A stretch of DNA of 64,000 bases. Origin: Lentisphaerae bacterium GWF2_49_21. GTDB taxonomy: Bacteria; Verrucomicrobiota; Lentisphaeria; Victivallales; GWF2-50-93. Shown piece after piece: positions 6,126 through 63,692 of the stretch (position 1 is the stretch's first letter; each line of letters starts with the position of its first letter). The notes below the pieces were generated by a model. It did no database searches, was not told where the DNA came from, and worked only from the letters and a program-made list of their open reading frames with translations. The translations under genes and the position numbers were made by a program. The stretch spans positions 1 to 64,000 of the forward strand of contig MHBH01000043.1 of the NCBI GenBank assembly GCA_001804805.1, read 5' to 3'.

Positions 6126-7419
6126 TCAGGTATTCCTTGAGCAGTCCGGCAAGGTATCCGATATCTTTTTCCGAATGTGCCGCGGAAATGAAACCCACTT
6201 CGAACTGAGATGGCGACAGATAAATCCCCTTCTTCAGCATAGACCTGAAGAAATCTGCGAACTTCGCAGTGTCGCAGTCTCTTATCTCTTCAAGATTCCT
6301 GAGCGGCTTCCTGCCAGTAAAGAAAATTGTGAACATACCGCCTTCGCTCACACAATGGACGCCAAGCCTTTTTTCACTTGCCTTCTTATTCACAAGGCAC
6401 TCAATTTTCTTTGCGAACTTCGCAAGTCGTGGATAAGGATTTTCCTTTTTGAGTATCTTCAGCGTCTCGATGCCTGCTGCGAGCGCGACAGGATTTCCGC
6501 TGAGTGTGCCGGCCTGATAGACCGGACCAAGGGGCGCAAGCTTCTTCATTATCGCAGCCTTTCCACCAAGTGCACCAATCGGCATCCCTCCTCCAATGAT
6601 CTTACCGAGAGTCGTAAGATCAGGAGTTATCCCGCAGATTTTCCCGTATGTCGTCGGACCAAGACGGAATCCGGTTATGACTTCATCGAAAATCAAAAGT
6701 GATCCGCTCTTTTTTGTCAGCTTCCTCAATGATTCAAGGAATCCAAGTTCCGGCTTGACAAGACCCATGTTTCCGGCGACTGGCTCCACTATCACTGCCG
6801 CAATATCATTCCCGTGTTTAGAGAAAATCTTTTCCACTGCCGCAATGTCATTATACGCACAGACAAAGACATCATTCACAGCTCCGGCTGGGACTCCTGC
6901 GGAACTTGAAATCCCACCGGTAAGAAGCCCGCTTCCAGCGGCCACAAGCAGATAGTCGGCATGTCCATGATAGCATCCGTCGAACTTGAGGATCTTGTTC
7001 CTTCCGGTGAATCCTCTTGCAAGCCTGATAGCAGTCATCACCGCTTCAGTCCCAGAGGTCACCATCCTGACCATTTCCAGATAAGGAACCATGTCGGTCA
7101 ACAGTTCGGCCATCTCGACTTCCCGGGGAGTGCATGTGCCAAAGCTCATACCATCTGCTGCGGCTTTCTGTACCGCCTCGACAACTTCCCTTCTCGCATG
7201 ACCTAGGATAAGCGGCCCCCACGATCCGCAGAAGTCAATATATCTTTTCCTGTCTGTGTCAAAGACATAAGCCCCCTGCCCTTTTTTCATGTAGACAGGA
7301 TTCCCGCCAACGGACCTGAACGCCCTCACCGGGCTGTTCACTCCGCCGGGGATTAGTTTTTCAGCACGTTTGAACAAAACATTGCCAATTGTCGATTGCC
7401 GATTGCCGATTTTTTTCAT
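6112..7419 (-). CDS. hemL: Glutamate-1-semialdehyde 2,1-aminomutase
   Basis: HemL is a PLP enzyme converting glutamate-1-semialdehyde to 5-aminolevulinate, following HemA. The 435-residue protein has the family opening LIPGGVNSPVRAF, the aspartate motif LLIFDEVITGFR and the PLP-lysine region TTLGKIIGGGMPIGALGG. Start is the ATG at 7417-7419, six or seven bases after GAAGGA. The N-terminal IGNRQSTIGN segment is encoded by a 7-bp repeat array, so the terminus looks altered by repeat expansion. The gene continues the hemA-hemCD-hemB order but is separated from hemB by a tannase-like gene and hipBST. Confidence 0.95.
   Translation of the reverse strand: MKKIGNRQSTIGNVLFKRAEKLIPGGVNSPVRAFRSVGGNPVYMKKGQGAYVFDTDRKRYIDFCGSWGPLILGHARREVVEAVQKAAADGMSFGTCTPREVEMAELLTDMVPYLEMVRMVTSGTEAVMTAIRLARGFTGRNKILKFDGCYHGHADYLLVAAGSGLLTGGISSSAGVPAGAVNDVFVCAYNDIAAVEKIFSKHGNDIAAVIVEPVAGNMGLVKPELGFLESLRKLTKKSGSLLIFDEVITGFRLGPTTYGKICGITPDLTTLGKIIGGGMPIGALGGKAAIMKKLAPLGPVYQAGTLSGNPVALAAGIETLKILKKENPYPRLAKFAKKIECLVNKKASEKRLGVHCVSEGGMFTIFFTGRKPLRNLEEIRDCDTAKFADFFRSMLKKGIYLSPSQFEVGFISAAHSEKDIGYLAGLLKEYLTKKV
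7381..7415. repeat. Heptamer array inside the hemL start
   Basis: Five consecutive 7-base units: ATTGCCA, ATTGTCG, ATTGCCG, ATTGCCG, ATTTTTT. The array lies within the first codons of hemL and is translated as part of its N-terminus. Confidence 0.8.
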
Positions 7420-12555: not shown

Positions 12556-14709
12556 TCACCTCTGATTTAAGATCTTCTTTTCAATCAGTTTTTCAGCCAG
12601 CGATTCAATGCAGCCGTTGATCGTCGCTTCCTTCGCCAAAATAATACTGCCTTTATACTTGAACTTCTTCAATGTCCCAAGCGTCGGCCTGCCAATGACA
12701 ACTGTATCCTTGCCTTTCAGCTTTTCCAGACCGAAATTAGCGCGGAAGGATTCAACTGCGGACGAACTGGCAAATATTGCTGCATCAAATTCCGGGAGCT
12801 TATCATATTTCACCAGAACATTCCTGTAAAGTATTTCATCTGTGACGGTTGCCCCCAGCTTGCGAAGTTCGCAGGAGATTTCCTTGCTGGCCTTGTCGGA
12901 GCACAGACGCAGTACCTTGTCACCTTTCTTGACATGTAACGTTATCGCCTTCAGGAGCCCTTCGGCTCCGTAACTATCAGACGCCTCGATATCAGGGCTT
13001 ATCCCATTCCTGCGAAATTCATCTGCCGTACCTGGACCACAGACGATGATTTTCGGCAGACGCCGAAAATCATATCTTTCCTTTTTCAATGATTCAATAA
13101 AAATCTTCACCGCAGATGGGGAAGTCAGCATTATCCAGTCGTATGTCTTCAGGAGTGTAGAACAGGCGTCTCGCCTGTTTTCTTCTAATCTTATCATCGG
13201 CATCCTGACAGGTATTCCGCCAAGCTCACGAACTTTATTGACCGCCTTGTCCATGATGGAATCACTGCATGTCAAAAGAATTTTCTTCCCTTGCAAAGCT
13301 CCATTTTTCTTCAGCAGATATTTCGGATCTGCGTTCTCGCCAACGATAAAGATTCCTGGCGCTTCGCTTCCTGGAATCTTTATTACTGAGCGGGCAAAGC
13401 CGCTCAGAGAACCAATGATTACTTCTTGTTGAATCTCATTTCCTGCAGAAATAACAACCGCAGCAGGCGTATTCCTGCTTCTCCCATCCTTGATCAGGAA
13501 TTTTGCGATGTTCGCAGTTTCAGAAAGCCCCATGAAGAAAACAGATGGGAAACTAAGTCTCTCTTCCTTTGAAACATGCTGGAATTCAGATGAACCGGAT
13601 CTGCGGGGCGTCATTACGGAAAATCCCCTTGACAGTCCACGTCGCGTCAGCATAAGGCCAGTAGCTCCGACTGCATTCAAGCTGCTGACACCGGGAATCA
13701 CCCTGTATGGCAGTTCAAGCTTATCGAGCGTTTCGATTTCTTCTGCGAGCCTTCCGAATATCGTCGGATCCCCGCCCTTGAGACGGACGACGCTCTTCCC
13801 CTGTCTTGCGAACTTCGCAATCAGGGCATTAATCTCATCCTGCTTCATACTGTGGCAGCCGCTTCTTTTACCGACGAAGAGCATTCGTGCTGTCTCGGGA
13901 AGGTTCTTGAGCAGGTCGGATGAAATTAATGCATCATAGAGGCAGACATCGCATATTCTCAAGGCATCTACAGCGGCGAGAGTTGCGAGATCAGCATCTC
14001 CAGGCCCAGCTCCGGCGAACACCACCGATTTCACGAACAGCTTCCGGATCTCATTGAAGATTCCATCCTCTTTCCTGTAAGTCAGAGCAAGCCACCCCTG
14101 CCCTTCGGGGGGAGCAAGCTCCCTTTCATCTATGTATTCAGAGATCCTGTTTTCGAGTCCTAACCTCTTAAGGCCGGCGGCGGCCATGATGAGCATGTCG
14201 AATTTGCCGGCATCCAGCTGGGCTATCCTGTCATCGATGTTGCCTCTTATAGGCAGAAGTTCCGCCTTCGGGAATTTCTTCCTGCAATATTCCTCGCGGC
14301 GCGCACTACTGACACCGATGCGCATTTTCGATTTTCGATTGATGATTTTTAATTTTAAAATTCTTAACTTCGCCATTTCGGGCATTATAATTACATCCCT
14401 TGCATCTTCGCACCATGGCAACCAGAACCAGTCGATTCCTTCCGGCATCGGATCCGGGAGATCCTTGGCGCTGTGGATGGCGCAGTCGATCTTTCTGGAG
14501 CGTATGGCGTCATCAAGATCCTTTGTGAAAAAGTCAGCCGGGGAGACTTTCAGATCGGTCTTCCTGTCACGGTCGCCGGGGGTGGAAACAGTCTCAAGCT
14601 TGAATTCAATGCATGGAAGGATTGCCTTGAGCTTGTCCAGGGAATCCGAAGTCTGCGCGACTGAAAGCTTGCTGCCACGCGTCCCGACTTTTATCTTGAC
14701 TCTTTTCAT
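12556..14709 (-). CDS. hemC: HemC-CobA-HemD trifunctional fusion, HemC third domain missing
   Basis: One 717-residue chain carries three activities of the uroporphyrinogen/precorrin branch. Residues 1-225 match porphobilinogen deaminase domains 1 and 2 (Arg11, catalytic Asp83 in HSAKDLP, Arg137-Arg138, IRGNIDDR). Residues about 228-470 are uroporphyrinogen-III methyltransferase (GAGPGDADL, RLKGGDPTIFGR, IPGVSSLNA), giving precorrin-2. The remainder is uroporphyrinogen-III synthase. Domain 3 of HemC, with the cysteine that anchors the dipyrromethane cofactor, is absent: the chain passes from EGQGWLALTYRKED almost directly into CobA. A heptamer array adds residues near 114-128 and a REP is translated as RRDACS in HemD. 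No ribosome site precedes the ATG. Confidence 0.92.
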   Translation of the reverse strand: MKRVKIKVGTRGSKLSVAQTSDSLDKLKAILPCIEFKLETVSTPGDRDRKTDLKVSPADFFTKDLDDAIRSRKIDCAIHSAKDLPDPMPEGIDWFWLPWCEDARDVIIMPEMAKLRILKLKIINRKSKMRIGVSSARREEYCRKKFPKAELLPIRGNIDDRIAQLDAGKFDMLIMAAAGLKRLGLENRISEYIDERELAPPEGQGWLALTYRKEDGIFNEIRKLFVKSVVFAGAGPGDADLATLAAVDALRICDVCLYDALISSDLLKNLPETARMLFVGKRSGCHSMKQDEINALIAKFARQGKSVVRLKGGDPTIFGRLAEEIETLDKLELPYRVIPGVSSLNAVGATGLMLTRRGLSRGFSVMTPRRSGSSEFQHVSKEERLSFPSVFFMGLSETANIAKFLIKDGRSRNTPAAVVISAGNEIQQEVIIGSLSGFARSVIKIPGSEAPGIFIVGENADPKYLLKKNGALQGKKILLTCSDSIMDKAVNKVRELGGIPVRMPMIRLEENRRDACSTLLKTYDWIMLTSPSAVKIFIESLKKERYDFRRLPKIIVCGPGTADEFRRNGISPDIEASDSYGAEGLLKAITLHVKKGDKVLRLCSDKASKEISCELRKLGATVTDEILYRNVLVKYDKLPEFDAAIFASSSAVESFRANFGLEKLKGKDTVVIGRPTLGTLKKFKYKGSIILAKEATINGCIESLAEKLIEKKILNQR
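13157..13182. repeat. REP palindrome inside the hemD portion
   Basis: GTAGAACAGGCG-TCT-CGCCTGTTTTC lies wholly within coding sequence and is translated in frame on the minus strand (ENRRDACST). It is the same family as the REPs flanking the transposase at 33363 and 34075. Confidence 0.8.
14324..14365. repeat. Heptamer array inside hemC
   Basis: Six 7-base units (ATTTTCG, ATTTTCG, ATTGATG, ATTTTTA, ATTTTAA, AATTCTT). They encode the Lys/Ile-rich stretch between HemC domains 1 and 2. Compared with E. coli HemC from memory, this linker is about seven residues longer, which equals three heptamers. Confidence 0.75.
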
Positions 14710-14782
14710 TCAACGTTCGGTGTTCGATGTTGGACGTTCGATGTTCAAAACTATTCACAGGCAAGATGCCTGTGCTACATTC
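14709..14782. repeat. Heptamer array and REP between hemA and hemC
   Basis: Six heptamers (TTCAACG, TTCGGTG, TTCGATG, TTGGACG, TTCGATG, TTCAAAA) occupy 14709-14750, up to the hemC start codon. A GTAG-footed REP (minus strand, about 14756-14780) follows, ending at the hemA stop. The whole spacer between these two genes is repeat. Confidence 0.85.
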
Positions 14783-14783
14783 T

Positions 14784-16286
14784 TCAGGATCCTTTAATGC
14801 CGTTCATAAGCTTTTCAAACTGCGGACGGTGCTCTTCAACGGCTTGAGAGCTCTTATCAAAGACATGCGACATGTCGATGGCCTCGCGGCGGTGCCAGTG
14901 CTTCAGATCGTCGAGATCGGCGATTGTCATATTCGGCATCAGTTTCTTGAATTCAGGAGATACATTTCGCGGTATCCCGAGATCGATTATCAGCATTTTC
15001 CTGGTCTGGTCCATGAACGGAGCATGTCCGTTATGGATGAGATAGGCAGGAGTCGTTGCTACAGAAATTATGATCTCAGCAGAAGGAAGATGGTCTTTCA
15101 TCTCGTTAAGATTGCAAAGCCTGATCTTCTCTCCATGTTTGACTTCAGGGCGGTTCATATGGTAGCACCAGGTGAAGGAACATCCTTTGGCGATCAGTTT
15201 TTCCGCAATTGCCTGGCCTATTATGCCGGTTCCGATGAGCATCACGCCGTGCTTTGAAATATCCGGAAAAATGTCAGAAGCATACTTGAGAGACAGATCC
15301 TCAATTTCGAAAGCTGAGAACATGGGTTCGACGATCTGGCGGATATGCTTCGAGATATGGAGAGTGTTGTCAAACCATTCCTGCATCAGTTTTCCAGCCC
15401 AGCCTTTTGACTTCGAATAGTCGAGAGCGCTCTTGAGCTGCGCGGTTATGTGTTTCTCGCCGGGTGTCTGGGACATAAGTCCGGCGCAGACAAAAGACAT
15501 ATGCCTGAAGGCGTCATATCCGTATTTCATGTAGTATGAATCATCGCGGAGGATGTCAAATCCTAATATCTTCAGCAGGAGCTTCTCAAGAGGCTGTGAC
15601 GGAGATACAAATGCAACCACCTCGATCCTGTTGCAGGTGTTGACGAGCATGAACTCGTGGACTCCAAGGAGATTGGTGAGCATTTCGCCGGTACAGTCAA
15701 ATCTGTCGCCGACCAGATGCACAGACTCACGTTCGTTGAGGCTAAGGTAGTTCTGGTCAGTCCCGATGACAAGCATTTCAGTCTTCGAGATGAAATCCAT
15801 ATGCCGGGATATCTTCTCCTTTATCAAGCGGCTCCTCCTGCAGGAGGTTCCGCCGGTTGAGACTGACACCATGAGGCCGTCCTTCTCGATAGATGCCGGC
15901 GTGATGAAGGCGCCATCCTTCCAGTTCTCATCAACGGCACAGCAGAGTATCCCCTGCTTTTTGCAATGCTCAAGGACTTCCGAGTTTACAGTACCGCTGT
16001 TTGTAGCGGAAAACACAAGGGCCATGCCTTTCAGGTATGATGGCTCAAATTTACTTTTTACAATTGAAAGACTATCCGGTGATCCGAGCTCCGTTATTTC
16101 AGGATCGATCTCAGGAGCCAGTACAGTGACATGAGCATGTGCCTTGAGCAGAAGCTGGATCTTGTGGAGCGCGACGCTGCCTCCGCCGACGACAAGGCAT
16201 TTCCTCCCCTTGAGGAGGAGATTTACCGGGAATGTCTTGTGCTCAGTTTTAGTGTTTGTTTTCATGATTTTCGCACACTGTTTCAT
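14784..16286 (-). CDS. hemA: Fusion of precorrin-2 dehydrogenase and glutamyl-tRNA reductase
   Basis: The first 160 or so residues match the SirC/Met8 fold that oxidises precorrin-2 to sirohydrochlorin (VVGGGSVALHKIQLL, an Asp in CCAVDENWKDGAFITPA, VSTGGTSCRRSRLI). The rest is HemA, which reduces glutamyl-tRNA: catalytic Cys in LVNTCNRIE and NADPH-domain GTGIIGQAIAEKL. The usual GxNHKTAPV start of HemA reads GTDQNYLSLNERE, and the C-terminal dimerisation helix region is shortened by about 80 residues. HemA joined to a CysG-like domain is known in Clostridium hem operons. ATG at 16286 or GTG at 16295 are both possible. Confidence 0.92.
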   Translation of the reverse strand: MKQCAKIMKTNTKTEHKTFPVNLLLKGRKCLVVGGGSVALHKIQLLLKAHAHVTVLAPEIDPEITELGSPDSLSIVKSKFEPSYLKGMALVFSATNSGTVNSEVLEHCKKQGILCCAVDENWKDGAFITPASIEKDGLMVSVSTGGTSCRRSRLIKEKISRHMDFISKTEMLVIGTDQNYLSLNERESVHLVGDRFDCTGEMLTNLLGVHEFMLVNTCNRIEVVAFVSPSQPLEKLLLKILGFDILRDDSYYMKYGYDAFRHMSFVCAGLMSQTPGEKHITAQLKSALDYSKSKGWAGKLMQEWFDNTLHISKHIRQIVEPMFSAFEIEDLSLKYASDIFPDISKHGVMLIGTGIIGQAIAEKLIAKGCSFTWCYHMNRPEVKHGEKIRLCNLNEMKDHLPSAEIIISVATTPAYLIHNGHAPFMDQTRKMLIIDLGIPRNVSPEFKKLMPNMTIADLDDLKHWHRREAIDMSHVFDKSSQAVEEHRPQFEKLMNGIKGS

Positions 16287-16386
16287 GTTATGCACTTAAA
16301 ATGAAATCTATGCCGGTTTCGTCCTGTTTTCAATTCATAGTCCTGTGAAAATTATTTATACTCAAGTCTTAAAAGACAAAGACATG

Positions 16387-28599: not shown

Positions 28600-29277
28600 A
28601 TGAAAGCTTTATCTGACATAAAATGGGATATGAATGCGGCCGAGATCGAAGCGGAGAGCTTCCGCATCATTGAAAAGGAATTCCCGAATCATCCTTTCAA
28701 AGGGCCGGAATGGAATGTTGCAAGACGCCTCATCCACACCACTGCCGACTTCTCCATCTGCGGCAACCTCGTGTTCAAGGGCAACCCGATAGAAGCGGGA
28801 CTGAAGGCCGTTACTGGAGGTGCCATGATCTACTGCGACTCGAACATGATACGGAGCGGAATATCCGTCCCGAAGCTCAGGCTCTTAAACCCCGCTTATT
28901 CGAAGGAATCCATCCACTGCTATATCGCCGACAGCGACGTCGCCGAGATGGCCGAGAAGGATGGGACGACCCGCGCCCTTGCATCATTGAAGAAAGCCGA
29001 AAAGATATTGGACGGAGCCATAGTCCTCATTGGCAATGCACCACTCGCGCTTGCGGGAATCGCAAAGCTTTATCTCGAAAAGAAAATCAGGCCATCCCTG
29101 ATAATCGGAATGCCTGTCGGCTTCGTCAATGTCATCGAATCGAAAGTCCTGCTTTCAAAAACGGATATTCCATATATTATGATAGAAGGAAGAAGGGGCG
29201 GGAGCACGCTTGCAGTGGCGACACTGCATGGAATAATGGAGAATATCAACCACAAAGGCACAAAGGCACAAAGTTAA
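28600..29277 (+). CDS. cbiC: Cobalt-precorrin-8 methylmutase
   Basis: CbiC moves the C11 methyl group to C12, giving cobyrinate (or its cobalt form). The 225-residue protein has the catalytic histidine in RLIHTTADFS and the family segments GGAMIYCDSNMI and IGNAPLAL, with IIGMPVGFVNVIESK near the end. Start is ATG at 28600, seven bases after TAAGG. The last eight residues (HKGTKAQS) are encoded by an octamer array, so the C-terminus has been extended or replaced by repeat. Confidence 0.94.
   Translation: MKALSDIKWDMNAAEIEAESFRIIEKEFPNHPFKGPEWNVARRLIHTTADFSICGNLVFKGNPIEAGLKAVTGGAMIYCDSNMIRSGISVPKLRLLNPAYSKESIHCYIADSDVAEMAEKDGTTRALASLKKAEKILDGAIVLIGNAPLALAGIAKLYLEKKIRPSLIIGMPVGFVNVIESKVLLSKTDIPYIMIEGRRGGSTLAVATLHGIMENINHKGTKAQS
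29250..29273. repeat. Octamer array at the end of cbiC
   Basis: CCACAAAG, GCACAAAG and GCACAAAG follow without gaps and are translated as the CbiC C-terminus. Confidence 0.75.
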
Positions 29278-29282
29278 ATAGC

Positions 29283-35218: not shown

Positions 35219-36647
35219 ATTTTATGCGTTCTGCATAGCCGGGACCAATTCCGGAGTTGGCAAGACGACCATCACGCTCGGGCTTCTGAGGGCATTGAAG
35301 AAACGTGGTCTGAAAGTTGCGCCTTTTAAATGCGGCCCCGACTACATCGACACCGCCTTCCACAAGGCCGCATGCGGCTCTCCATCGAGAAATCTTGACA
35401 CCTGGATGACACCCCGAGGGGTGCTTTCCTATATTTTCAAGAAGGGATGCGCCAATTCCGATTGTGCAGTGATAGAAGGCGTCATGGGGATGTTCGACGG
35501 CGCAAAGGCTGGAAAACTCAAAGGCAGTACTGCGGATGTCGCAATGAAGCTGGATGTTCCTGTCCTGCTCGCTGTAAACGCCCGTGGAATGGCCGGGAGC
35601 ATAGCTCCGATTGTCAAAGGCTATACTGAGTTCAACAAAAAGATAAAGATAATCGGCGTAATTGCTAACAACGTATCATCTGGACGTCACGCCCAGATCC
35701 TGAAAGATTCCTTGAAGGTGTCAAATCTCCCTCCCCTCATCGGCTGGATTCCGCGCGATGAGACTCTTAAGCTCCCGGAACGGCATCTCGGATTAGTTCC
35801 GGCCTTCGAAAATATAAAGACTCAGAAATGGTTCGACAGGCTGGCGAGGATTTGCGAGGAGAATGTTGATATCGACAGGATTTTAAAGGTGACAGGTGTC
35901 AGGCCTGCCCCGCGTAGCTCGCAGAGCGAAGTGGGGTGTCAGGCCTGCCCCGCGAAGCCTTGGCGTAGGAGGGGCGTCAGTCGTCAGTCGTCAGTTGCAA
36001 GAAGGCAATTGAAAAATCACCCGATCACCAAATCTTCAAATCTTCCAATCAGGATTGCCATCGCCCACGACGACGCTTTCAACTTCTACTACGAGGACAA
36101 CTTCGATGTCCTGCGCGACACCGGACACGAACTTGTCTTCTTCTCCCCGCTGAAGGACAAACGTCTACCGGATGGCGTTTCAGCCCTTTACATAGGAGGC
36201 GGATTCCCGGAAGTGTTCGCAAAGAAGCTATCAGCAAACAAGACGATGCTGAAGTCGGTTGCGGATTTCGCAGATGCCGGCGGGAATATTCTTGCCGAAT
36301 GCGGTGGATTCATGTATTTATCCAGAAGTATTTTTTGCGGACGCAAAAAATATAACATGGCAAGAGTTATTCCATACTCGATAAGAATGGAAGAAAAACT
36401 TCACTCCCTTGGTTACAGGGAAATAAAGCTCCTGCACGACTCTTTCCTTGGCAGGAAAGGCATGATATTGCGCGGCCATGAATTCCATTGGTCATCTGCT
36501 AAAGCACTTTCGAGGAACATTGAGCCTGCATTCATGGCAAGAGGGACTAGAGATAAGAACTGGAGTCCGGCGGGGATAAGGACAAAGAGTGTAATAGCGA
36601 GTTATATGCATCTTTATTTTCCATCGAACCAACAGGCATTCAGATGA
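35208..36647 (+). CDS. cbiA: Cobyrinate a,c-diamide synthase with repeat insertion
   Basis: CbiA amidates the a and c side chains of cobyrinate with glutamine and ATP. The 479-residue protein has the ATP loop GTNSGVGKTT, the metal/substrate motif KCGPDYIDTAFH and a class I glutaminase domain with the nucleophile Cys in LAECGGFMYL. Between the two domains about 50 extra residues (from TGVRPAPRS to TKSSNL) are encoded by two copies of a 20-base repeat, three CGTCAGT heptamers and an octamer array. The reading frame stays open through it. It is the last cbi gene of the block. Confidence 0.94.
   Translation: MEHKFYAFCIAGTNSGVGKTTITLGLLRALKKRGLKVAPFKCGPDYIDTAFHKAACGSPSRNLDTWMTPRGVLSYIFKKGCANSDCAVIEGVMGMFDGAKAGKLKGSTADVAMKLDVPVLLAVNARGMAGSIAPIVKGYTEFNKKIKIIGVIANNVSSGRHAQILKDSLKVSNLPPLIGWIPRDETLKLPERHLGLVPAFENIKTQKWFDRLARICEENVDIDRILKVTGVRPAPRSSQSEVGCQACPAKPWRRRGVSRQSSVARRQLKNHPITKSSNLPIRIAIAHDDAFNFYYEDNFDVLRDTGHELVFFSPLKDKRLPDGVSALYIGGGFPEVFAKKLSANKTMLKSVADFADAGGNILAECGGFMYLSRSIFCGRKKYNMARVIPYSIRMEEKLHSLGYREIKLLHDSFLGRKGMILRGHEFHWSSAKALSRNIEPAFMARGTRDKNWSPAGIRTKSVIASYMHLYFPSNQQAFR
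35895..36053. repeat. In-frame repeat insertion in cbiA
   Basis: GGTGTCAGGCCTGCCCCGCG occurs at 35895-35914 and 35935-35954. CGTCAGT is repeated three times at 35975-35995. Octamers AAATCACC, CGATCACC, AAATCTTC, AAATCTTC, CAATCAGG occupy 36014-36053. All lie in the linker between the two CbiA domains. Confidence 0.82.
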
Positions 36648-43964: not shown

Positions 43965-44450
43965 CTATTGCATTCATAGAACGGCGTGTACGCCGTCATG
44001 ATGCTTGAGCGTAAAAATGAAAAGATATTCTCGCACAAAGGCACAGAGACACAAAGCAAATAAATGAAGCAAAAGTTTTAGGAAAAGAGTCTTCAGTCTT
44101 CGCCTGGGAGGCTACGCCCGACAAGGAGAAAGAACCCGTCCCGAGATCTTTCAGACCCGGGATCTTCGATTTTCAAAAGGGTTTGTCTCAGTCCGAGCAG
44201 GAATGCGAAGAAAAAAATAAACTTGATGACTTTCTTCGTGGCCTTCACCTTGGCGAAGACGGATCTTCTTCGTGTTGAATGCTTGCTTTGTGGCTCCGTG
44301 GCTTTGTGCGAGGAGACGAATTTAGAATTTTAACCACGGATAAGGATTCGCCTAACGGCGGAAAGCCGTAGGAGATCTTTAAGCGTTTTAGTACAAGAAC
44401 GGCCCCCTGCACTATCAAGTGAAATTAGCCGCAATATGCAAGGCCCTGGA
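43965..44450. repeat. Repeat-filled gap, no gene seen
   Basis: It holds an ACGGCG-TGTA-CGCCGT hairpin at about 43981-43996, an octamer array at 44033-44056 (GCACAAAG, GCACAGAG, ACACAAAG), several short hairpins at 44090-44260, and an inverted octamer array at 44285-44308 (GCTTTGTG, GCTCCGTG, GCTTTGTG). I see no coding region. Confidence 0.65.
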
Positions 44451-48475: not shown

Positions 48476-48991
48476 GCTACGTTCCCGATGCCCTGGAAGA
48501 CATGTATATATCAATTAGGCGTCGTCGTCAACGGACTTGAAATCCCAAGCTCCAACTTCCAAAATCCAAACAAATTCCAATTTACAAACAAAGCTAAAAA
48601 CAAGAACAGCCCTTGCGGGCTTAATCCTCCTACGCCAAGAGGGCTTCCCTCTTCGTCCGCTGTAGCGGAACTACGAGGGACAGGACGGAGGACAGGCTAC
48701 GAACGGATACAAATAAATTCTTGAAGATTGAATATGTTTGTAGTTAACGTCGCAAGACGTGTTCTTGATTGATTTGCTTGTAGTAGCGCATGTTTGCGCG
48801 TTAAGTAGGTACGTGCTTCAGCATGTACCATCTTAAAGTCTAAGAATGGGACAGGCTAAAGCCCGTCCCTACTTTAAGAACGCTCGAACACGAGCTATCC
48901 GCCTTCGCCAAGATGCTACGGCGAGACAAGCTACGAACAAATATCCTAAGTCCGGCAGGCTCCGTGGCGGATTGGAACTTGGAGCTTGCAA
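48476..48991. repeat. Repeat-filled gap with heptamers and several REPs
   Basis: A heptamer array at 48545-48586 (CCAAGCT, CCAACTT, CCAAAAT, CCAAACA, AATTCCA, ATTTACA) is followed by CTACG-type hairpins, an AACGTCGCAAGACGTG hairpin near 48737, a GTAGTAG hairpin at 48779-48800, the reversed composite REP at 48804-48880, and heptamers GGAACTT, GGAGCTT at 48974-48987. No gene was seen. Confidence 0.7.
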
Positions 48992-49893: not shown

Positions 49894-51888
49894 ATACGCG
49901 ACCGGCCTGAAGAGTGCGCTGCCTTTGATGAGGTCGATGTGCTCCGGCATCACGTAGATGAAATCGCCGCATTTGTACTTCGAATGGGTTCCGCTCGTTA
50001 TGAACTTGCTCTTGCGCTTCTTGTAGGCGAACCCAAGATATTCAACCGGAATGAATGACAATATCCCCAGATCAGGAATGAAAACTCCGAGCCCTGCGGC
50101 TGAAATCTTCCGTATCACACCCTCAAAACAGTCTATGTCCGCCTCAAGCAGTTTCTCTTTGAGATAATGCAGCTTGAGGCGGTCGTTTGCCGCATAATAC
50201 GCCTCGTCATTGTTCTGCTCCTTCTCCGAACATTCCAACGCGATCCTCGCAACTTCATCCTTGCCTCTCATCTTGCCGGCAAAATCCACGGCCCAGAGCT
50301 GCTGGTGGACAAGCAGGTCGGGATACCGACGGATAGGACTCGTGAAATGGCAGTATGTCCCTTTGCCCAATCCGTAATGCAGCTGGTTCTTCTCATGGTA
50401 GGTGGCCCGCTGAAGTGAACGCAGGAACGCATCCATGATCACCTGCTTCCGATGATCGTCCGGAAGCTTTGAGAGAAAATGGTTGCACGCCTTACGGCTT
50501 CCCAGATCACCTGTATGAAGCCCGAAAGTTTCCTCGACAAATCCCGAAAACTCCTGCTGCTTCTCATCGGTAGGTTCGGGATGGATCCTGAAAATACCTG
50601 GAATGTTCCGCCTGACAAGCTCCTTCGCGACCTCGACATTTGCCGCAAGCATGCACTCCTCGACGAGCATGTCCGATTCGGTCTGGACTTCACGCCGCAG
50701 CCCTTTGATTTTTTTCGTGACATCGTCACAAAGCACTCTGATCTCAGTGGTGGAAAGCTGCAGGAATTGCTCCATCTCCCTGCGGTAATGCCTCATTTTC
50801 CTCGTCAACTCGACAAGCATTTTCATATGATGCGCAATTTCCGGCTCCCAGCTGCACGGTTTGCCGTCGATAAAATCCTGGACCTCGTCGAATGTAAGCC
50901 TCTTCGCGATCCTCAGACGGCTGTGCACCCTTCTGGAACGGATAATCATTCCAGTATGCGCGTCAACTGTAAAAATCACGCTGTGACAGTATGACTTCTT
51001 GCCGGGGATAAGACTTATCGTCTGGGTGATGTCCTTCGGCAGCATAGGAAGCGTGTTGCCGGGGATATATGATGTAAAGGATCTTTTTTTCGCCTTGATG
51101 TCCCATTCTGAATCGTGCCATATCCATGCTGCGACATCCGCAATATGGATACCAAGATCCATTTCATTTTTTTCTTTTCCTGGCCTGATAGAAATCGAGT
51201 CGTCGAAGTCCTTAGCGTCCGGAGGATCAATTGTCATGCAGACAAGATCCGACATGTCCTCCCTGTCGACCTGGATTGGTTCTATCTGGGCTGCCTTCTC
51301 CCAGTCCTCAGCGGAATATGGCGGACAAAGCCCGTATTCTTTAATTACTGCGGCGATGTCGGATTCTACTGTGCCCGCCTGTCCGATCGTAGATTTAAGC
51401 GTGCCCCGATGTTCCCTATCCTGAAACCTGCCTCCAGACATCTGCCCCCTGGCACCTGCCTCCTGCCCCCCGACACCTGACACCTTTCCCGTTTCTTCCA
51501 GCTCTATCTCGACCCAGTCGCCTTTTCTGGCGTTCTTGATGCTTCCGTTAATCGTGATGTCGCCCTGGAGTTTTTTGGAAAGCGGTCTGACTTTTCTTCC
51601 GGCGATCAGTTCACCGACAACAGTCTTCCTGGAACGTTCTATGATTTCGGCAATTCTTCCGGCAGGCCCTTTCATGTTCGGCCTCTGCTCCCGGAGAAAA
51701 CTTACTTTGACAATGTCACCGTCAATGGCGTTGTCCAGAAATCGCGGAGGAATGAAAATATCCTGGGTTCCATCTTTCGGTGTGACAAATCCGAGACCGC
51801 CAGCGGAAACGCTCAGTTTCCCCTCGACAAAAGTCTCCTTCTGCTCTTCTCTTCTATGCTTTTCCAGCTTATGCCGCCATTTTGCCAT
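49891..51888 (-). CDS. rnr: Ribonuclease R (RNB family) with 21-residue repeat insertion
   Basis: RNase R degrades structured RNA from the 3' end. The 665-residue protein has an N-terminal cold-shock region (GLGFVTPKDGTQDIFIPP), the catalytic acidic motif TIDPPDAKDFDD, HFTSPIRRYPDLLVHQ and a C-terminal S1 segment. Between the second cold-shock domain and the RNB domain lies a Gly/Arg/Gln-rich stretch encoded by nine heptamers (51426-51488). ATG at 51888 follows AAGGG by nine bases; a TTG at 51897 is an alternative. Confidence 0.94.
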   Translation of the reverse strand: MAKWRHKLEKHRREEQKETFVEGKLSVSAGGLGFVTPKDGTQDIFIPPRFLDNAIDGDIVKVSFLREQRPNMKGPAGRIAEIIERSRKTVVGELIAGRKVRPLSKKLQGDITINGSIKNARKGDWVEIELEETGKVSGVGGQEAGARGQMSGGRFQDREHRGTLKSTIGQAGTVESDIAAVIKEYGLCPPYSAEDWEKAAQIEPIQVDREDMSDLVCMTIDPPDAKDFDDSISIRPGKEKNEMDLGIHIADVAAWIWHDSEWDIKAKKRSFTSYIPGNTLPMLPKDITQTISLIPGKKSYCHSVIFTVDAHTGMIIRSRRVHSRLRIAKRLTFDEVQDFIDGKPCSWEPEIAHHMKMLVELTRKMRHYRREMEQFLQLSTTEIRVLCDDVTKKIKGLRREVQTESDMLVEECMLAANVEVAKELVRRNIPGIFRIHPEPTDEKQQEFSGFVEETFGLHTGDLGSRKACNHFLSKLPDDHRKQVIMDAFLRSLQRATYHEKNQLHYGLGKGTYCHFTSPIRRYPDLLVHQQLWAVDFAGKMRGKDEVARIALECSEKEQNNDEAYYAANDRLKLHYLKEKLLEADIDCFEGVIRKISAAGLGVFIPDLGILSFIPVEYLGFAYKKRKSKFITSGTHSKYKCGDFIYVMPEHIDLIKGSALFRPVAY
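51426..51488. repeat. Nine-unit heptamer array inside rnr
   Basis: ACCTGCC, TCCAGAC, ATCTGCC, CCCTGGC, ACCTGCC, TCCTGCC, CCCCGAC, ACCTGAC, ACCTTTC: nine uninterrupted 7-base units, 63 bases or exactly 21 codons, so the frame is kept. Confidence 0.92.
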
Positions 51889-51938: not shown

Positions 51939-52160
51939 TCTAAAGTATGTCGGGTTTTAACCCGACGATTAATTGGCGGTTTAAAAACCGCCTTACTTTA
52001 AGATCGTAATTTGGAATAAGAACATGCCTTACGGCATTAACTACAAACAAATTAATCAAGAACACGTCTTGCGACGTTAACTACAAACGAATTCACAAGA
52101 ATCTAATTGCATAAGTTCGTAGTTAAGCTCGCAAGAGCTGTTCTCCTGTTTCTGTATCGG
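51939..52160. repeat. REP cluster between rnr and panB
   Basis: GTCGGGTTTTAACCCGAC and GGCGGTTTAAAAACCGCC hairpins within 51945-51995, then a 71-base double element at 52018-52088 (ATGCC-TTAC-GGCAT and ACGTC-TTGC-GACGT, each followed by CTACAAAC), then GTAGTTAAGCTCGCAAGAGC near 52118-52141. The panB promoter is not obvious. Confidence 0.75.
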
Positions 52161-52293
52161 CCAGGATTTATTCGCCAATGGCGATATGACCGAGTTACTT
52201 CTTTGCATTTTTCCCGTTTCACCCTTATTTTATATCTTTAATCCTTTATTTACATTTATTTGCGTATTATTTTCACAAAATCAATTGGTAATT

Positions 52294-53100
52294 ATGGACA
52301 TCCAGAAGAAAATCACGACCCGGTATTTCCGGCAGAAAAAGGAAAAAGGCGAGAAGATACTGTCACTGACCGCCTATGACGCCCCGACTGCGAAGTTCGC
52401 GGAGGAGTGCGGCATAGAACTCCTCCTTGTCGGAGATTCACTCGGTATGGCACTGCTCGGCTACAAGAGCACCATACCCGTCACCATCGAACAGTCCCTC
52501 CACCACTGCGCCGCCGTCGCACGCGGTGCGAAATTCGCATTCATCGTCGGCGACATGCCGTTCATGACCTACCATCCGAGCGTCAAGACGGCGATGACCA
52601 ATGCCGCCAGATACATACAGGAGGCAGGAGTAGACGGAGTGAAGCTTGAAGGCGGCAAGGTCATATCCAAAACCATAACCCGACTTGTCGGGGCCGGTGT
52701 ACCGGTAATGGGCCATATCGGACTTCTCCCCCAGAGCGTCCTCACCCAGGGCGGTTACCGCATAGCCGGCAAGACCAAGGATGAAGAACAGCGTCTCATC
52801 GAAGACGCGAAAGCCGTCGAGGATGCAGGAGCTTTCTGCATCGTCCTCGAATGCATCCCCGCAGAATTGAGCGCACGCATAACCGCATCATTGAAAATTC
52901 CGACGATCGGAATCGGTGCAGGCCCGAAGTGCGACGGCCAGATCCAGGTGGTCAACGACATACTCGGAATGTTCACCGACTTCATTCCGAAACATGCGAA
53001 ACGCTATGCCAACCTCAGCGAAGAGATGAAAAAGGCCTTCACGGCATATGCCAGCGAAGTAAGCTCCGGCAAGTTCCCGGGGAAGGAAAATTCGTTCTGA
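52294..53100 (+). CDS. panB: 3-methyl-2-oxobutanoate hydroxymethyltransferase
   Basis: PanB makes ketopantoate for coenzyme A synthesis. The 268-residue protein has LTAYDAPTAKFAE, LLVGDSLGMALLG, VGDMPFMTY, VKLEGG and the end GIGAGPKCDGQIQVVNDILG. ATG at 52294 is chosen because the longer frame adds a hydrophobic leader unlike PanB. Direct 71-base repeats lie on both sides (52018-52088, 53176-53246). No panC or panD is adjacent. Confidence 0.95.
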   Translation: MDIQKKITTRYFRQKKEKGEKILSLTAYDAPTAKFAEECGIELLLVGDSLGMALLGYKSTIPVTIEQSLHHCAAVARGAKFAFIVGDMPFMTYHPSVKTAMTNAARYIQEAGVDGVKLEGGKVISKTITRLVGAGVPVMGHIGLLPQSVLTQGGYRIAGKTKDEEQRLIEDAKAVEDAGAFCIVLECIPAELSARITASLKIPTIGIGAGPKCDGQIQVVNDILGMFTDFIPKHAKRYANLSEEMKKAFTAYASEVSSGKFPGKENSF

Positions 53101-53103
53101 CCG

Positions 53104-53440
53104 GAGCGCTGGCGTCCCGCCGGCATTACTATTCTTCGAACCGCTTAATAAATTCCGAAATTCAGAAAAGAATCCAAGAACATGCCTTACGGCATTGACT
53201 ACAAACAAATCAATCAAGAACACGTCTTGCGACGTTGACTACAAACATATTCAATCTTCAAGAAATTAATTGTATCCGTTCGTAGCGGCCTACTGCGGTG
53301 GCTGCAGTTTTATCAATAAGAAACTTTTACCGGTAAAGTAGGGCGGTCATTCCTGGCCGCCATCTTGTCGGGCTGGAAGGCCCGACATACTTGTTGTGAA
53401 GTTACTATATCGATGAAAGCTAAACGGTATAAGCTCGCAA
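53104..53440. repeat. REP cluster between panB and ispD
   Basis: GGAGCGCTGGCG-TCC-CGCCGGC at 53103-53126, the second copy of the 71-base double element at 53176-53246, a 71-base element at 53304-53374 shared with 61513-61583, GTCGGGC/GCCCGAC at about 53367-53385, and AAGCTCGCAAGAGCTG near 53421. No gene was seen. Confidence 0.75.
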
Positions 53441-54169: not shown

Positions 54170-54184
54170 ATTATCTCAAACTTC

Positions 54185-54219
54185 TGATTACTGATCACTG
54201 TTTACTGATTACTGTATTT
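54185..54219. repeat. Heptamer array
   Basis: TGATTAC, TGATCAC, TGTTTAC, TGATTAC, TGTATTT: five uninterrupted 7-base units between the lipoprotein stop and ispD. Confidence 0.88.
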
Positions 54220-54845
54220 TACTTCGTCGGCGTCACATCCGGCCTTAGGTCATGTACTAAGTCCATAGCGCAACGGTAATACAATCCCATGGTAATCCTA
54301 GACCAGTTGATGTGATCGATGAGCGATGATATGGGCGAAAGGAATGAAATACCCCAGTCCGAATCAAGCGACCAGGTATTTCCGGAATACAGGAGCCTAC
54401 CATCCCTGGTATCATAGATGTTGATCTTAAGCATCACATATGAATACGCCGCAAAAATGAACCAGAAATGATCCTGGGTGATGACTTCGCCGACAATCAC
54501 GGCGTCGCTGTTCTGCTGGCGGGCGACCTTCAGTGCGTCTGAAGAGCAGAAAGGCCTTGCAACCAGCTTGTCCGTCTCATCAGGATTCGTGCATGGGCCT
54601 ATGAGGGAGAATCCCTGGAACATGGCCAGTCGCGCCCTCTCGGAGGCCTCCTGATACCATGTAGTGTTCTTGAAAGGATAGATCGTGAATGATTTCGGGT
54701 AGTTTTTGGTGAAACCGTAGTTGTTGGCGTCGACTGTCCTGTAGGTGTTGTGGCCGTCATACGTCATCGCATGGAACGTCCCGCATCCGGAACAGAATAT
54801 GGCACAGAATGCCAATAGGATGAGTGACAGATATATTCTCTTCAT
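54219..54845 (-). CDS. Lipoprotein, possibly GNA1162-like
   Basis: The 208-residue protein has a signal peptide and lipobox (IFCSGCG, Cys21). The mature part (SFTIYPFKNTTWYQEASERARLAMFQGFSLIGPCTN ... SDAVIVGEVITQDHF) resembles outer-membrane lipoproteins that work with ABC-type export or CsgG-like assemblies. That likeness is weak and should be treated as a hint. It lies upstream of ispD on the same strand. Confidence 0.7.
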   Translation of the reverse strand: MKRIYLSLILLAFCAIFCSGCGTFHAMTYDGHNTYRTVDANNYGFTKNYPKSFTIYPFKNTTWYQEASERARLAMFQGFSLIGPCTNPDETDKLVARPFCSSDALKVARQQNSDAVIVGEVITQDHFWFIFAAYSYVMLKINIYDTRDGRLLYSGNTWSLDSDWGISFLSPISSLIDHINWSRITMGLYYRCAMDLVHDLRPDVTPTK

Positions 54846-57325: not shown

Positions 57326-57660
57326 AGCGCTGGCAATTGTCTTGGCGTAGCATCTTAGCGAAGCCAGATCTGGTCGGCAATTCTTTAATAATGTGGTACA
57401 GGCGTCTCGCCTGTAATTTTGCTTTGAACATCGAACATTCAACTTTGAACTTCCAACTTCGAACGGAAGATGAATTCAAACTACCGGAGCGCCGGCATCT
57501 TGCCGGCAACGTAACACAGGCGTCTCGCTTGTGATTTCTTAAGACTTTGTTTGTAGTTAACGCGTTCTTGCGTGTTCTTCTCAGGGCATGAAAGACAGCC
57601 AATAATGGCTTGACTACGAACAAACGCGAAAACATTATTCCCGTAAGCTCGGTTACTGGT
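57326..57660. repeat. Dense repeat block after proS
   Basis: GGAGCGCTGGC... and a CTTGGCGTAGCATCTTAGCG-type hairpin come first. A REP follows at 57392-57416, then six heptamers at 57426-57467 (GAACATC, GAACATT, CAACTTT, GAACTTC, CAACTTC, GAACGGA). A GGAGCGCCGGCATCTTGCCG hairpin starts at 57486, a REP lies at 57511-57534 and a GTAGTTAACGCG-type one near 57552. No gene was seen in 57317-57667. Confidence 0.82.
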
Positions 57661-59161: not shown

Positions 59162-59348
59162 GGATTCCCCTCTTTTATGTAGTTATAGGATGTGGATAAT
59201 ATAGACCGCAAACCGGATTTTGTAAATATAAATATCCAGTTAAAGCTTCCATGAAAACTCCATGGCTATTTGAACTGCCCCTGCCAAAGATGTATAATTC
59301 ACATCGCCCAGAATCTCTTTGCCTGGGATTTTTCCGCTAAGGCGGTTT

Positions 59349-59362
59349 GGAACTTGGAACTT
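59349..59362. repeat. Two heptamers before nifU
   Basis: GGAACTT occurs twice in a row, the shortest of the 7-bp arrays, just upstream of the nifU ribosome site. Confidence 0.45.
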
Positions 59363-62876: not shown

Positions 62877-63692
62877 ATGAAGACAGTTTTTCTGGCGGCA
62901 ACGGTCTTGACAACGGCATTTCCCTCAAACATTCCAATGGAAAATAACAAAATGGAAATTCGTATTCGATCAAAGTTTACTCTGATCGAATTGCTGGTCG
63001 TGATTGCGATCATCGCAATTCTCGCAGCGATGCTCCTGCCCGCCTTGAAGAACTCGAAGGACATGGCCAAGAAGATCAACTGCATAAGCAACCTGTCCCA
63101 GGTCATGAAGGCGCATATGCTATATGCAGGAGACAACAACGACTTCATCTGGTATACCGGCTACGAGCTTCCCGACTACGACCAATGGACAATGGCCATC
63201 ACAGGCGGAAGGTTCTTCCCACAGGAAAAATACCTCTCCAGGAACTGTCTTGTCTGCCCGTCGACCAGCCCCGGCGTCTACAGCGCCAGTTCCTGGACAT
63301 ATGGCATGTATGCAGCCTGGTTGAACGGTGGAACCGACTACAACAACAAAGTTGCCACACAAGGGAATTTCATGATCTGGGATCCGGCATCAAGCGGCTG
63401 CAACGTCTTCTACAAGCTCTACATGTTCAAGCAGCCTTCGAACTTCGTACTTGTCGCCGATACCTTGACTGCCAGCACAGGTGCGCTAGCCTCCAGGAAC
63501 GAGCTGCCGCTCTGGTATTTCTCGTCCTTCAGGAAATGCGAGGATGCCGCAGTCGCACTGCTCCACAACGGCTTTGCAAACGGCTCATACGTGGACGGAC
63601 ACGTCGAAGGCCTCAACGCCGACGGTCTCAGGGACTGCGGTACGAACATCACAACCTATGTCACCATGAAAAGAATCATTGTCAATCCATAA
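62877..63692 (+). CDS. Type IV pilin-like (pseudopilin) secreted protein
   Basis: The 271-residue protein has the prepilin segment [24 protein letters not shown] and a C-terminal domain with [10 protein letters not shown], as in the large pseudopilin families of Lentisphaerota and Planctomycetota. GGAGG supports ATG at 62877, giving a long 33-residue leader; ATG at 62952 would leave a more usual short one (MEIRIRSK). It lies between the regulator and a secreted protein, an arrangement common in these phyla. Confidence 0.88.

What the first reader, a model, noticed from the sequence alone, without database searches (positions are those of the whole stretch)
14709..14750. Arrays with a fixed 7-bp period but a different unit at each locus
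Six perfect-phase heptamers sit here (TTCAACG, TTCGGTG, TTCGATG, TTGGACG, TTCGATG, TTCAAAA). Other loci use unrelated units with the same period: ATTGCCG (7381), ATTTTCG (14324), CGTCAGT (35975), CCAACTT (48545), ACCTGCC (51426), TGATTAC (54185), GAACATC (57426), GGAACTT (59349). Within an array the units differ at preferred positions but the phase does not slip. Heptanucleotide repeats (STRRs) are known in filamentous cyanobacteria; here many unrelated units coexist. That implies a process that sets unit length, not unit sequence, such as one-turn-related slippage or a templated copying enzyme.
Basis: seen in the sequence. Interest (0 to 1): 0.75.

Follow-up and report, generated by a model that had tools for sequence, protein, structure and literature searches.

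The report
Seven-base repeats hugging gene ends
This bacterium's intergenic DNA is dotted with short, imperfect repeats that mostly step by seven bases, often begin right after a gene's stop codon and point away from it; the seven-base rule was known, but the gene-end placement across many different repeat words is a useful extension.

Summary
In 1.45 Mb of the window's genome, degenerate tandem arrays with period 7 far outnumber periods 5, 6, 9, 10 and 11; only period 8 is a real second. The excess is mostly noncoding. "Many unrelated units" does not hold: loci share units about 30 times more often than chance, and the same unit families occur in other phyla while their mirror images mostly do not. 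Period-7 dominance and a length-setting slippage idea are already published (Mrázek 2007, via PMC4679880). New here: the arrays sit at ORF ends (31 within 20 bp of a stop codon against 15 expected, controlling for gap length), and each unit family keeps one orientation relative to that stop, as reported for G-rich GGGNATC repeats (PMC4692102) but here with units lacking G-runs. Between congeneric species, arrays recur at the same stop codons, sometimes with a different unit. Most likely these are slippage-maintained simple repeats, tolerated or favoured at ORF ends. Reverse-transcriptase copying finds no support: a congener with more than 100 array matches has no detectable reverse transcriptase. 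Why units are shared across phyla and why orientation is fixed remain unexplained. Verdict: real, a new variant of a known kind.

The parts
14709..14750 (-). Reported heptad array (gene sense GAACATCGAACGTCCAACATCGAACACCGAACGTTGA), between the hemA stop (14784, minus) and the hemC/hemD-fusion ATG (14709, minus)
   Evidence: G001 and G003 have a glutaredoxin-like ORF here instead
7379..7415 (-). Heptad array, AAATCGG/CAATTGG family, in or just before the 5' end of a class-III aminotransferase gene
14323..14356 (-). In-frame heptad array (ATTTTCG) inside the hemC/hemD fusion; G001 has ATTTTTG heptads plus TTTGTGCC octads in the same loop, G007 has GGCGCAAA-type octads plus AAATCCG heptads
35968..36004 (+). 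Three exact CGTCAGT copies in a CobB/CobQ-like gene
48543..48592 (+). Degenerate CCAACTT/CCAAATT array in an intergenic region
51419..51485 (-). In-frame heptad array in the RNase R gene (gene sense GGTGTCAGGTGTCGG...); absent from G001 and G003, which are about 57 nt shorter here
54180..54217 (-). Heptad array filling the operon gap: 1 bp after the stop of ORF 54219-54845 and 10 bp before the ispD ATG (gene sense CAGTAATCAGTAAACAGTGATCAG); absent from G001
57422..57466 (+). Heptad array GAACATCGAACATTCAACTTTGAAC downstream of the proS-like gene, sense orientation
59347..59362 (+). 2.3 copies of TTGGAAC, too short for the lag-7 scan
29245..29282 (+). Period-8 array (CACAAAGG)
44031..44308 (.). 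Inverted pair of period-8 arrays (CACAAAGG at 44031-44063, reverse complement at 44275-44308)
12556..14709 (-). hemC + methylase + hemD fusion gene, host of one in-frame array and downstream neighbour of the reported one
14784..16295 (-). Glutamyl-tRNA reductase (hemA) fused to a sirohaem-synthase-like domain, upstream neighbour

Best explanation
These are degenerate heptad (and fewer octad) simple sequence repeats, the kind known as long SSRs, STRRs or heptamer repeats. The most likely mechanism has three steps. (1) Short tracts gain and lose whole 7-nt (or 8-nt) units by strand slippage between neighbouring units, while point mutation diversifies them, so phase is kept and sequence drifts (inferred from the periodicity and the neighbour-similarity gradient). 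(2) Arrays survive mainly outside coding DNA or as in-frame inserts in tolerant protein loops, and sit preferentially at ORF ends, most often starting within 20 bp of a stop codon (shown statistically; cause inferred). (3) At that edge each unit family has a preferred strand relative to the gene, so array birth or persistence is strand-aware (shown for stop codons; mechanism not shown). A limited set of unit families recurs across loci and phyla, which pure slippage does not predict and which needs either biased birth or dispersal of seeds.
For: Period spectrum, also in congener G001 and in 558 kb of contigs from other phyla with the index array masked (90 at period 7 against 23 at 8, 20 at 9, 4 at 10). 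Noncoding bias: 77 noncoding and 15 coding while about 77% of the sequence is coding. Stop codons: 34 of 77 within 20 bp against 7.4 for random noncoding windows; 31 against 15.0 (p<5e-5) when each array is re-placed within its own gap, starts not enriched (13 against 13.5). GC-rich hairpins in the same genome are much less stop-adjacent (about 11%). Orientation at stops: 100 family-sharing pairs concordant, 4 discordant (pairs not independent); per array 28 to 5 heptads, 10 to 0 octads, and 18 to 1 within 60 bp in Desulfobacterales genome G045. Neighbour similarity: arrays detected by lag 14 have higher lag-7 than lag-21 identity, own 0.761 and 0.711, other phyla 0.805 and 0.735. Turnover: array present in one species and absent in its congener in RNase R, at the ispD gap and elsewhere.
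Against: Slippage alone does not predict unit families shared across loci or phyla, nor one fixed orientation at stop codons. Period 8 is also in excess, and octads often form inverted pairs, which looks more like a mobile fold-back element. One genome per species cannot show slippage events directly. Neighbour similarity is weak in G045 (0.787 and 0.777), and the lag test may be affected by array edges.
Confidence: 0.55

Rival explanations
1. ORF-end-targeted deposition: an unknown process adds arrays at gene ends, reading outward from the ORF, so newer arrays are inserted next to the stop codon and push older repeats away.
For: Stop adjacency and fixed orientation. Array co-occurrence at orthologous stop codons: 4 both, 14 own only, 3 G001 only, 108 neither, odds ratio 10, p=0.007, in part with different units. 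In one gap the own species carries a GATACTTG array between the stop and a GGTGTCA tract that lies directly at the stop in G003. At gene C43_57 a conserved hairpin follows different arrays in own and G001. Same geometry published for GGGNATC.
Against: The push-away case is single. Co-occurrence may reflect which gaps tolerate inserts. Heptads at start codons do not clearly follow the outward rule (7 to 4). No enzyme identified.
Confidence: 0.2
2. Templated copying by a reverse transcriptase of the telomerase-like DRT10 kind, which makes tandem-repeat DNA from an RNA template.
For: DRT10 makes short tandem-repeat cDNA, with 9-nt periodicity in the example analysed most closely (PMC12632851). 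The own genome has several reverse transcriptases.
Against: Congener G002, with 127 matches to a heptad pattern, has no RVT_1 match at about 90% completeness. The own reverse transcriptases best match retron-type models (the library predates DRT10). Units are graded by neighbour distance, not exchangeable. The passages read say nothing of genomic integration of DRT10 cDNA.
Confidence: 0.04
3. Remnants of mobile fold-back or MITE-like elements whose terminal inverted arms are heptad or octad arrays.
For: Octads occur as inverted pairs under 400 bp apart: own 7 inverted and 0 same, G001 11 and 2. Some octad arms are near-identical between copies in G001 (C1:18164 and C1:65287).
Against: Heptads show no clear excess of inverted pairs (9 inverted, 8 same, five of the latter in one cluster). 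Flanks of about 20 TCCAG-family arrays are largely unrelated.
Confidence: 0.12
4. Functional RNA or DNA sites bound in the 3' UTR, selected for spacing rather than sequence.
For: Fixed orientation and position after stop codons.
Against: Units differ between some orthologous sites and most orthologous stops of array-bearing genes lack an array in the congener.
Confidence: 0.09

Closest known systems
Long simple sequence repeats of 5-11 nt (Mrazek et al. 2007, as described in PMC4679880 and PMC4692102)
   Same: Heptanucleotide units are the commonest class of long-unit repeats in most bacterial genomes; a polymerase-contact slippage length of about 7 nt was proposed.
   Different: As described, that survey counted repeat series longer than statistically expected; the arrays here are degenerate, and position, orientation and unit sharing are tested.
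GGGNATC / GGGGA(C/T)T heptamers of Xanthomonas and Nostoc (Rehm et al. 2015, PMC4692102)
   Same: Intergenic heptads within 50 bp of stop codons on the coding strand, or upstream of ORFs on the non-coding strand; [quoted passage not shown]
   Different: There one G-rich family able to form quadruplexes; here several families without G-runs show the stop-codon geometry, so quadruplex formation cannot be its general cause.
TAACTGA direct repeats of Beggiatoaceae (MacGregor 2015, PMC4679880)
   Same: Intergenic heptads, patchy across distant phyla.
   Different: There a single unit mostly next to start codons; here many units, stop codons favoured.
Cyanobacterial tandem heptanucleotides (Calothrix; cited in PMC4692102; STRR name from memory)
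   Same: Several heptanucleotide families coexist in one genome.
   Different: Different phylum and units; the original paper was not read here.

Membership tests
Heptanucleotide simple sequence repeats (LSSR / STRR class) | Head-to-tail short units of fixed length | tested here: met
Heptanucleotide simple sequence repeats (LSSR / STRR class) | Excess over chance, period 7 most abundant among long units | tested here: met
Heptanucleotide simple sequence repeats (LSSR / STRR class) | Perfect or near-perfect units | tested here: not met
   Mean lag-7 identity within detected arrays is about 0.75; so these are not strict LSSRs, and the name is used here only in the wider, degenerate sense
Heptanucleotide simple sequence repeats (LSSR / STRR class) | Copy-number change by slippage between strains | not testable with these tools
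   Only one genome per species is held; one search is indirect support
GGGNATC quadruplex repeats (Rehm) | G-runs able to form a quadruplex | tested here: not met
   Main families ACTTGAT, GAACATC, GGTGTCA, AAATTGG lack GGG runs
GGGNATC quadruplex repeats (Rehm) | Close to stop codons, one orientation relative to the ORF | tested here: met
   compared
DRT10-type tandem-repeat synthesis | A DRT10-type reverse transcriptase in the genome | tested here: inconclusive
   Own reverse transcriptases best match retron-type models, but PADLOC 2.0 of 2023 predates DRT10; congener G002 has none detected
MITE or fold-back elements | Paired inverted arms with conserved ends at many loci | tested here: inconclusive
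   Seen for octads, not clearly for heptads

The most novel reading that the evidence does not exclude
A widespread bacterial process deposits arrays at ORF ends in a fixed orientation reading away from the gene, with a 7- (or 8-) nt step and a limited unit vocabulary shared by distant phyla, so that orthologous gene ends keep an array slot while its unit sequence is exchanged.
Probability: 0.18. Interest if true: 0.8.

Novelty: new variant of a known kind. Interest (0 to 1): 0.5.

Why it matters
Heptamer repeats have been noted for decades with no agreed cause. If position at ORF ends, fixed orientation and a cross-phylum unit vocabulary are general, then quadruplex formation, single-motif regulators and sequence-blind slippage each fail as complete explanations, and the cause becomes testable in any heptad-rich culturable bacterium. 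In practice, such arrays may also explain some in-frame protein insertions, as in RNase R and HemC here.

Tried and rejected
The first multi-species alignments mixed strands for the own locus and were redone. A mismatch-strict array finder missed most degenerate arrays and was replaced. The idea that orientation is explained by in-frame stop codons supplied by the array was considered: it fits ACTTGAT and TGGATTG but not GGTGTCA or CAGTTGT, which read open at stop codons. A general preference of all intergenic repeats for stop codons was rejected, since hairpins show only a modest one. Hairpins regularly following stop-adjacent arrays were not supported (4 of 34 against 45 of 475 controls). 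Reverse-transcriptase templating was tested and weakened. A transcription-sense rule and an outward rule could not be separated for heptads at start codons. The cross-phylum GAAC orientation test was weak: 19 to 6, of which seven of the 19 have the stop codon inside the array itself, so about 12 to 5.

Full report
What was checked. The reported array at 14709-14750 exists and keeps phase. It lies between hemA and a hemC/hemD fusion gene on the minus strand. Counting it, nine loci were named; eight are recovered by a lag-7 scan and 59349 is too short.

Is it more than chance. I fetched 1.445 Mb of the window's 5.9-Mb assembly (one search places the window). Arrays at least 76% identical at a fixed lag over 21 comparisons number 92 at period 7, 31 at 8, 26 at 9, and 1-4 at 4, 5, 6, 10, 11 and 13; in noncoding DNA 77, 27, 13 and 0-4. 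Period 9 is split equally between coding and noncoding DNA and is probably partly codon structure. A third-order Markov control on a 647-kb subset gave 0-2 arrays per period at the stricter settings. Congener G001 has the same two periods, with 8 slightly ahead.

The units are not unrelated. Thirty-six pairs of loci share at least three unit classes against 1.1 when positions within the unit are permuted. Recurrent families are GAACATC/GAACTTC, ACTTGAT/ACTGGAT, AAATTGG/AAATCGG, AACTTGA, GGTGTCA and the octads TGGATTGA and CACAAAGG. With those arrays masked, the same contigs still show 90 period-7 arrays against 23 at 8, and the own genome shares units with them above permuted and mirrored controls (29 against 4.1 and 3; the contigs were chosen for one family, which may inflate this). 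The ACTTGAT family gives 62 matches in the own genome and 241 in a Desulfobacterales genome, against 0 and 7 for the mirrored pattern; G002, in the same genus, instead has 127 matches to the mirrored pattern and none to the forward one. GGTGTCA gives matches in 6 of 79 genomes of the phylum, the mirrored control in none. Distribution is patchy: the same-order relatives sampled there have none.

Where they sit. Of 77 noncoding heptad arrays, 34 lie within 20 bp of a stop codon; random noncoding windows predict 7.4. Re-placing each array at random inside its own gap, a stricter control, predicts 15.0 against 31 observed, with no enrichment at start codons (13 against 13.5). Octads: 10 against 4.8. 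GC-rich hairpins are far less stop-adjacent. In other phyla the excess is about twofold with a crude gene caller (37 of 120 against 18.8). Gene calls were made with a simple codon-usage script, not a standard tool.

Orientation. At stop codons each family reads in one direction: GATACTTGATACTGG, GAACATCGAAC and GGTGTCAGG in gene sense. By pairs, 100 concordant to 4 (not independent); by array, 28 to 5 heptads and 10 to 0 octads, and in the Desulfobacterales genome 10 to 1 within 20 bp and 8 to 0 at 20-60 bp. This is the geometry published for GGGNATC repeats. Because the families here lack G-runs, quadruplexes cannot be its general cause.

Between species. In RNase R the own species has about 57 nt of in-frame array that G001 and G003 lack; the ispD gap array is absent from G001. 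In the hemC loop the own species has ATTTTCG heptads, G001 ATTTTTG heptads plus octads, G007 octads plus AAATCCG heptads. At 129 orthologous stop codons arrays co-occur in own and G001 four times against about one expected (odds ratio 10, p=0.007), twice in the same or a similar family (C32_28, C32_18) and twice with a clearly different unit (C32_125, C32_102). In one gap the own array lies between the stop codon and a GGTGTCA tract that in G003 adjoins the stop. These comparisons are few, and heterogeneity in which gaps tolerate inserts could produce the co-occurrence.

Mechanism. Shown: preferred step, noncoding bias, stop adjacency, orientation, shared vocabulary, turnover. Inferred: slippage as the maintaining process, supported by neighbours being more alike than units three apart when arrays are detected by lag 14. 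A templated reverse transcriptase is unlikely: G002 has none detected, and the own ones best match retron-type models. Unexplained: why few unit families recur across phyla, and why strand is fixed at stop codons.

Known work. Period-7 predominance and the polymerase-contact idea belong to Mrazek et al. 2007, as cited in PMC4679880 and PMC4692102; I did not read that paper itself. Heptamers next to start codons (PMC4679880) and next to stop codons (PMC4692102) are published for single motifs. The taxon was not established; the best hits among named contigs are mostly Lentisphaerae.

Noticed in passing
window 48770-48897: Interspersed repeat of about 125 bp with dozens of copies in congener G001, many matching on both strands: a MITE-like element.
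   Followed up: no
window 62964-63095, 44010-44336, 51942-51998, 53257-53395: Further interspersed repeat families shared with G001 and G003 at many places.
   Followed up: no
window 14750-14785 and 57375-57405: Small palindromes of the type ACAGGC(N)GCCTGT next to heptad arrays; 59 in noncoding DNA of 1.445 Mb.
   Followed up: partly
L012 2322-2391 and 3222-3260; L241, L247, L252: Heptad arrays in the leader region just before a prepilin-like [16 protein letters not shown] motif in several paralogous genes.
   Followed up: partly
window 14709-14784: G001 and G003 carry a glutaredoxin-like ORF between hemA and hemC that the window lacks; the array lies in its place.
   Followed up: partly
window 52018-52101 and 53175-53256: Two tandem pairs of a 40-bp unit AAGAACACGCCTTACGACATTAACTACAAACA flanking ORF 52186-53100; a similar motif occurs in G001 downstream of other genes.
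   Followed up: no
G002: Congener with 127 matches to CTATGACCTATGAACTATGACCT, the mirror of the own TCCAGTATC family.
   Followed up: no
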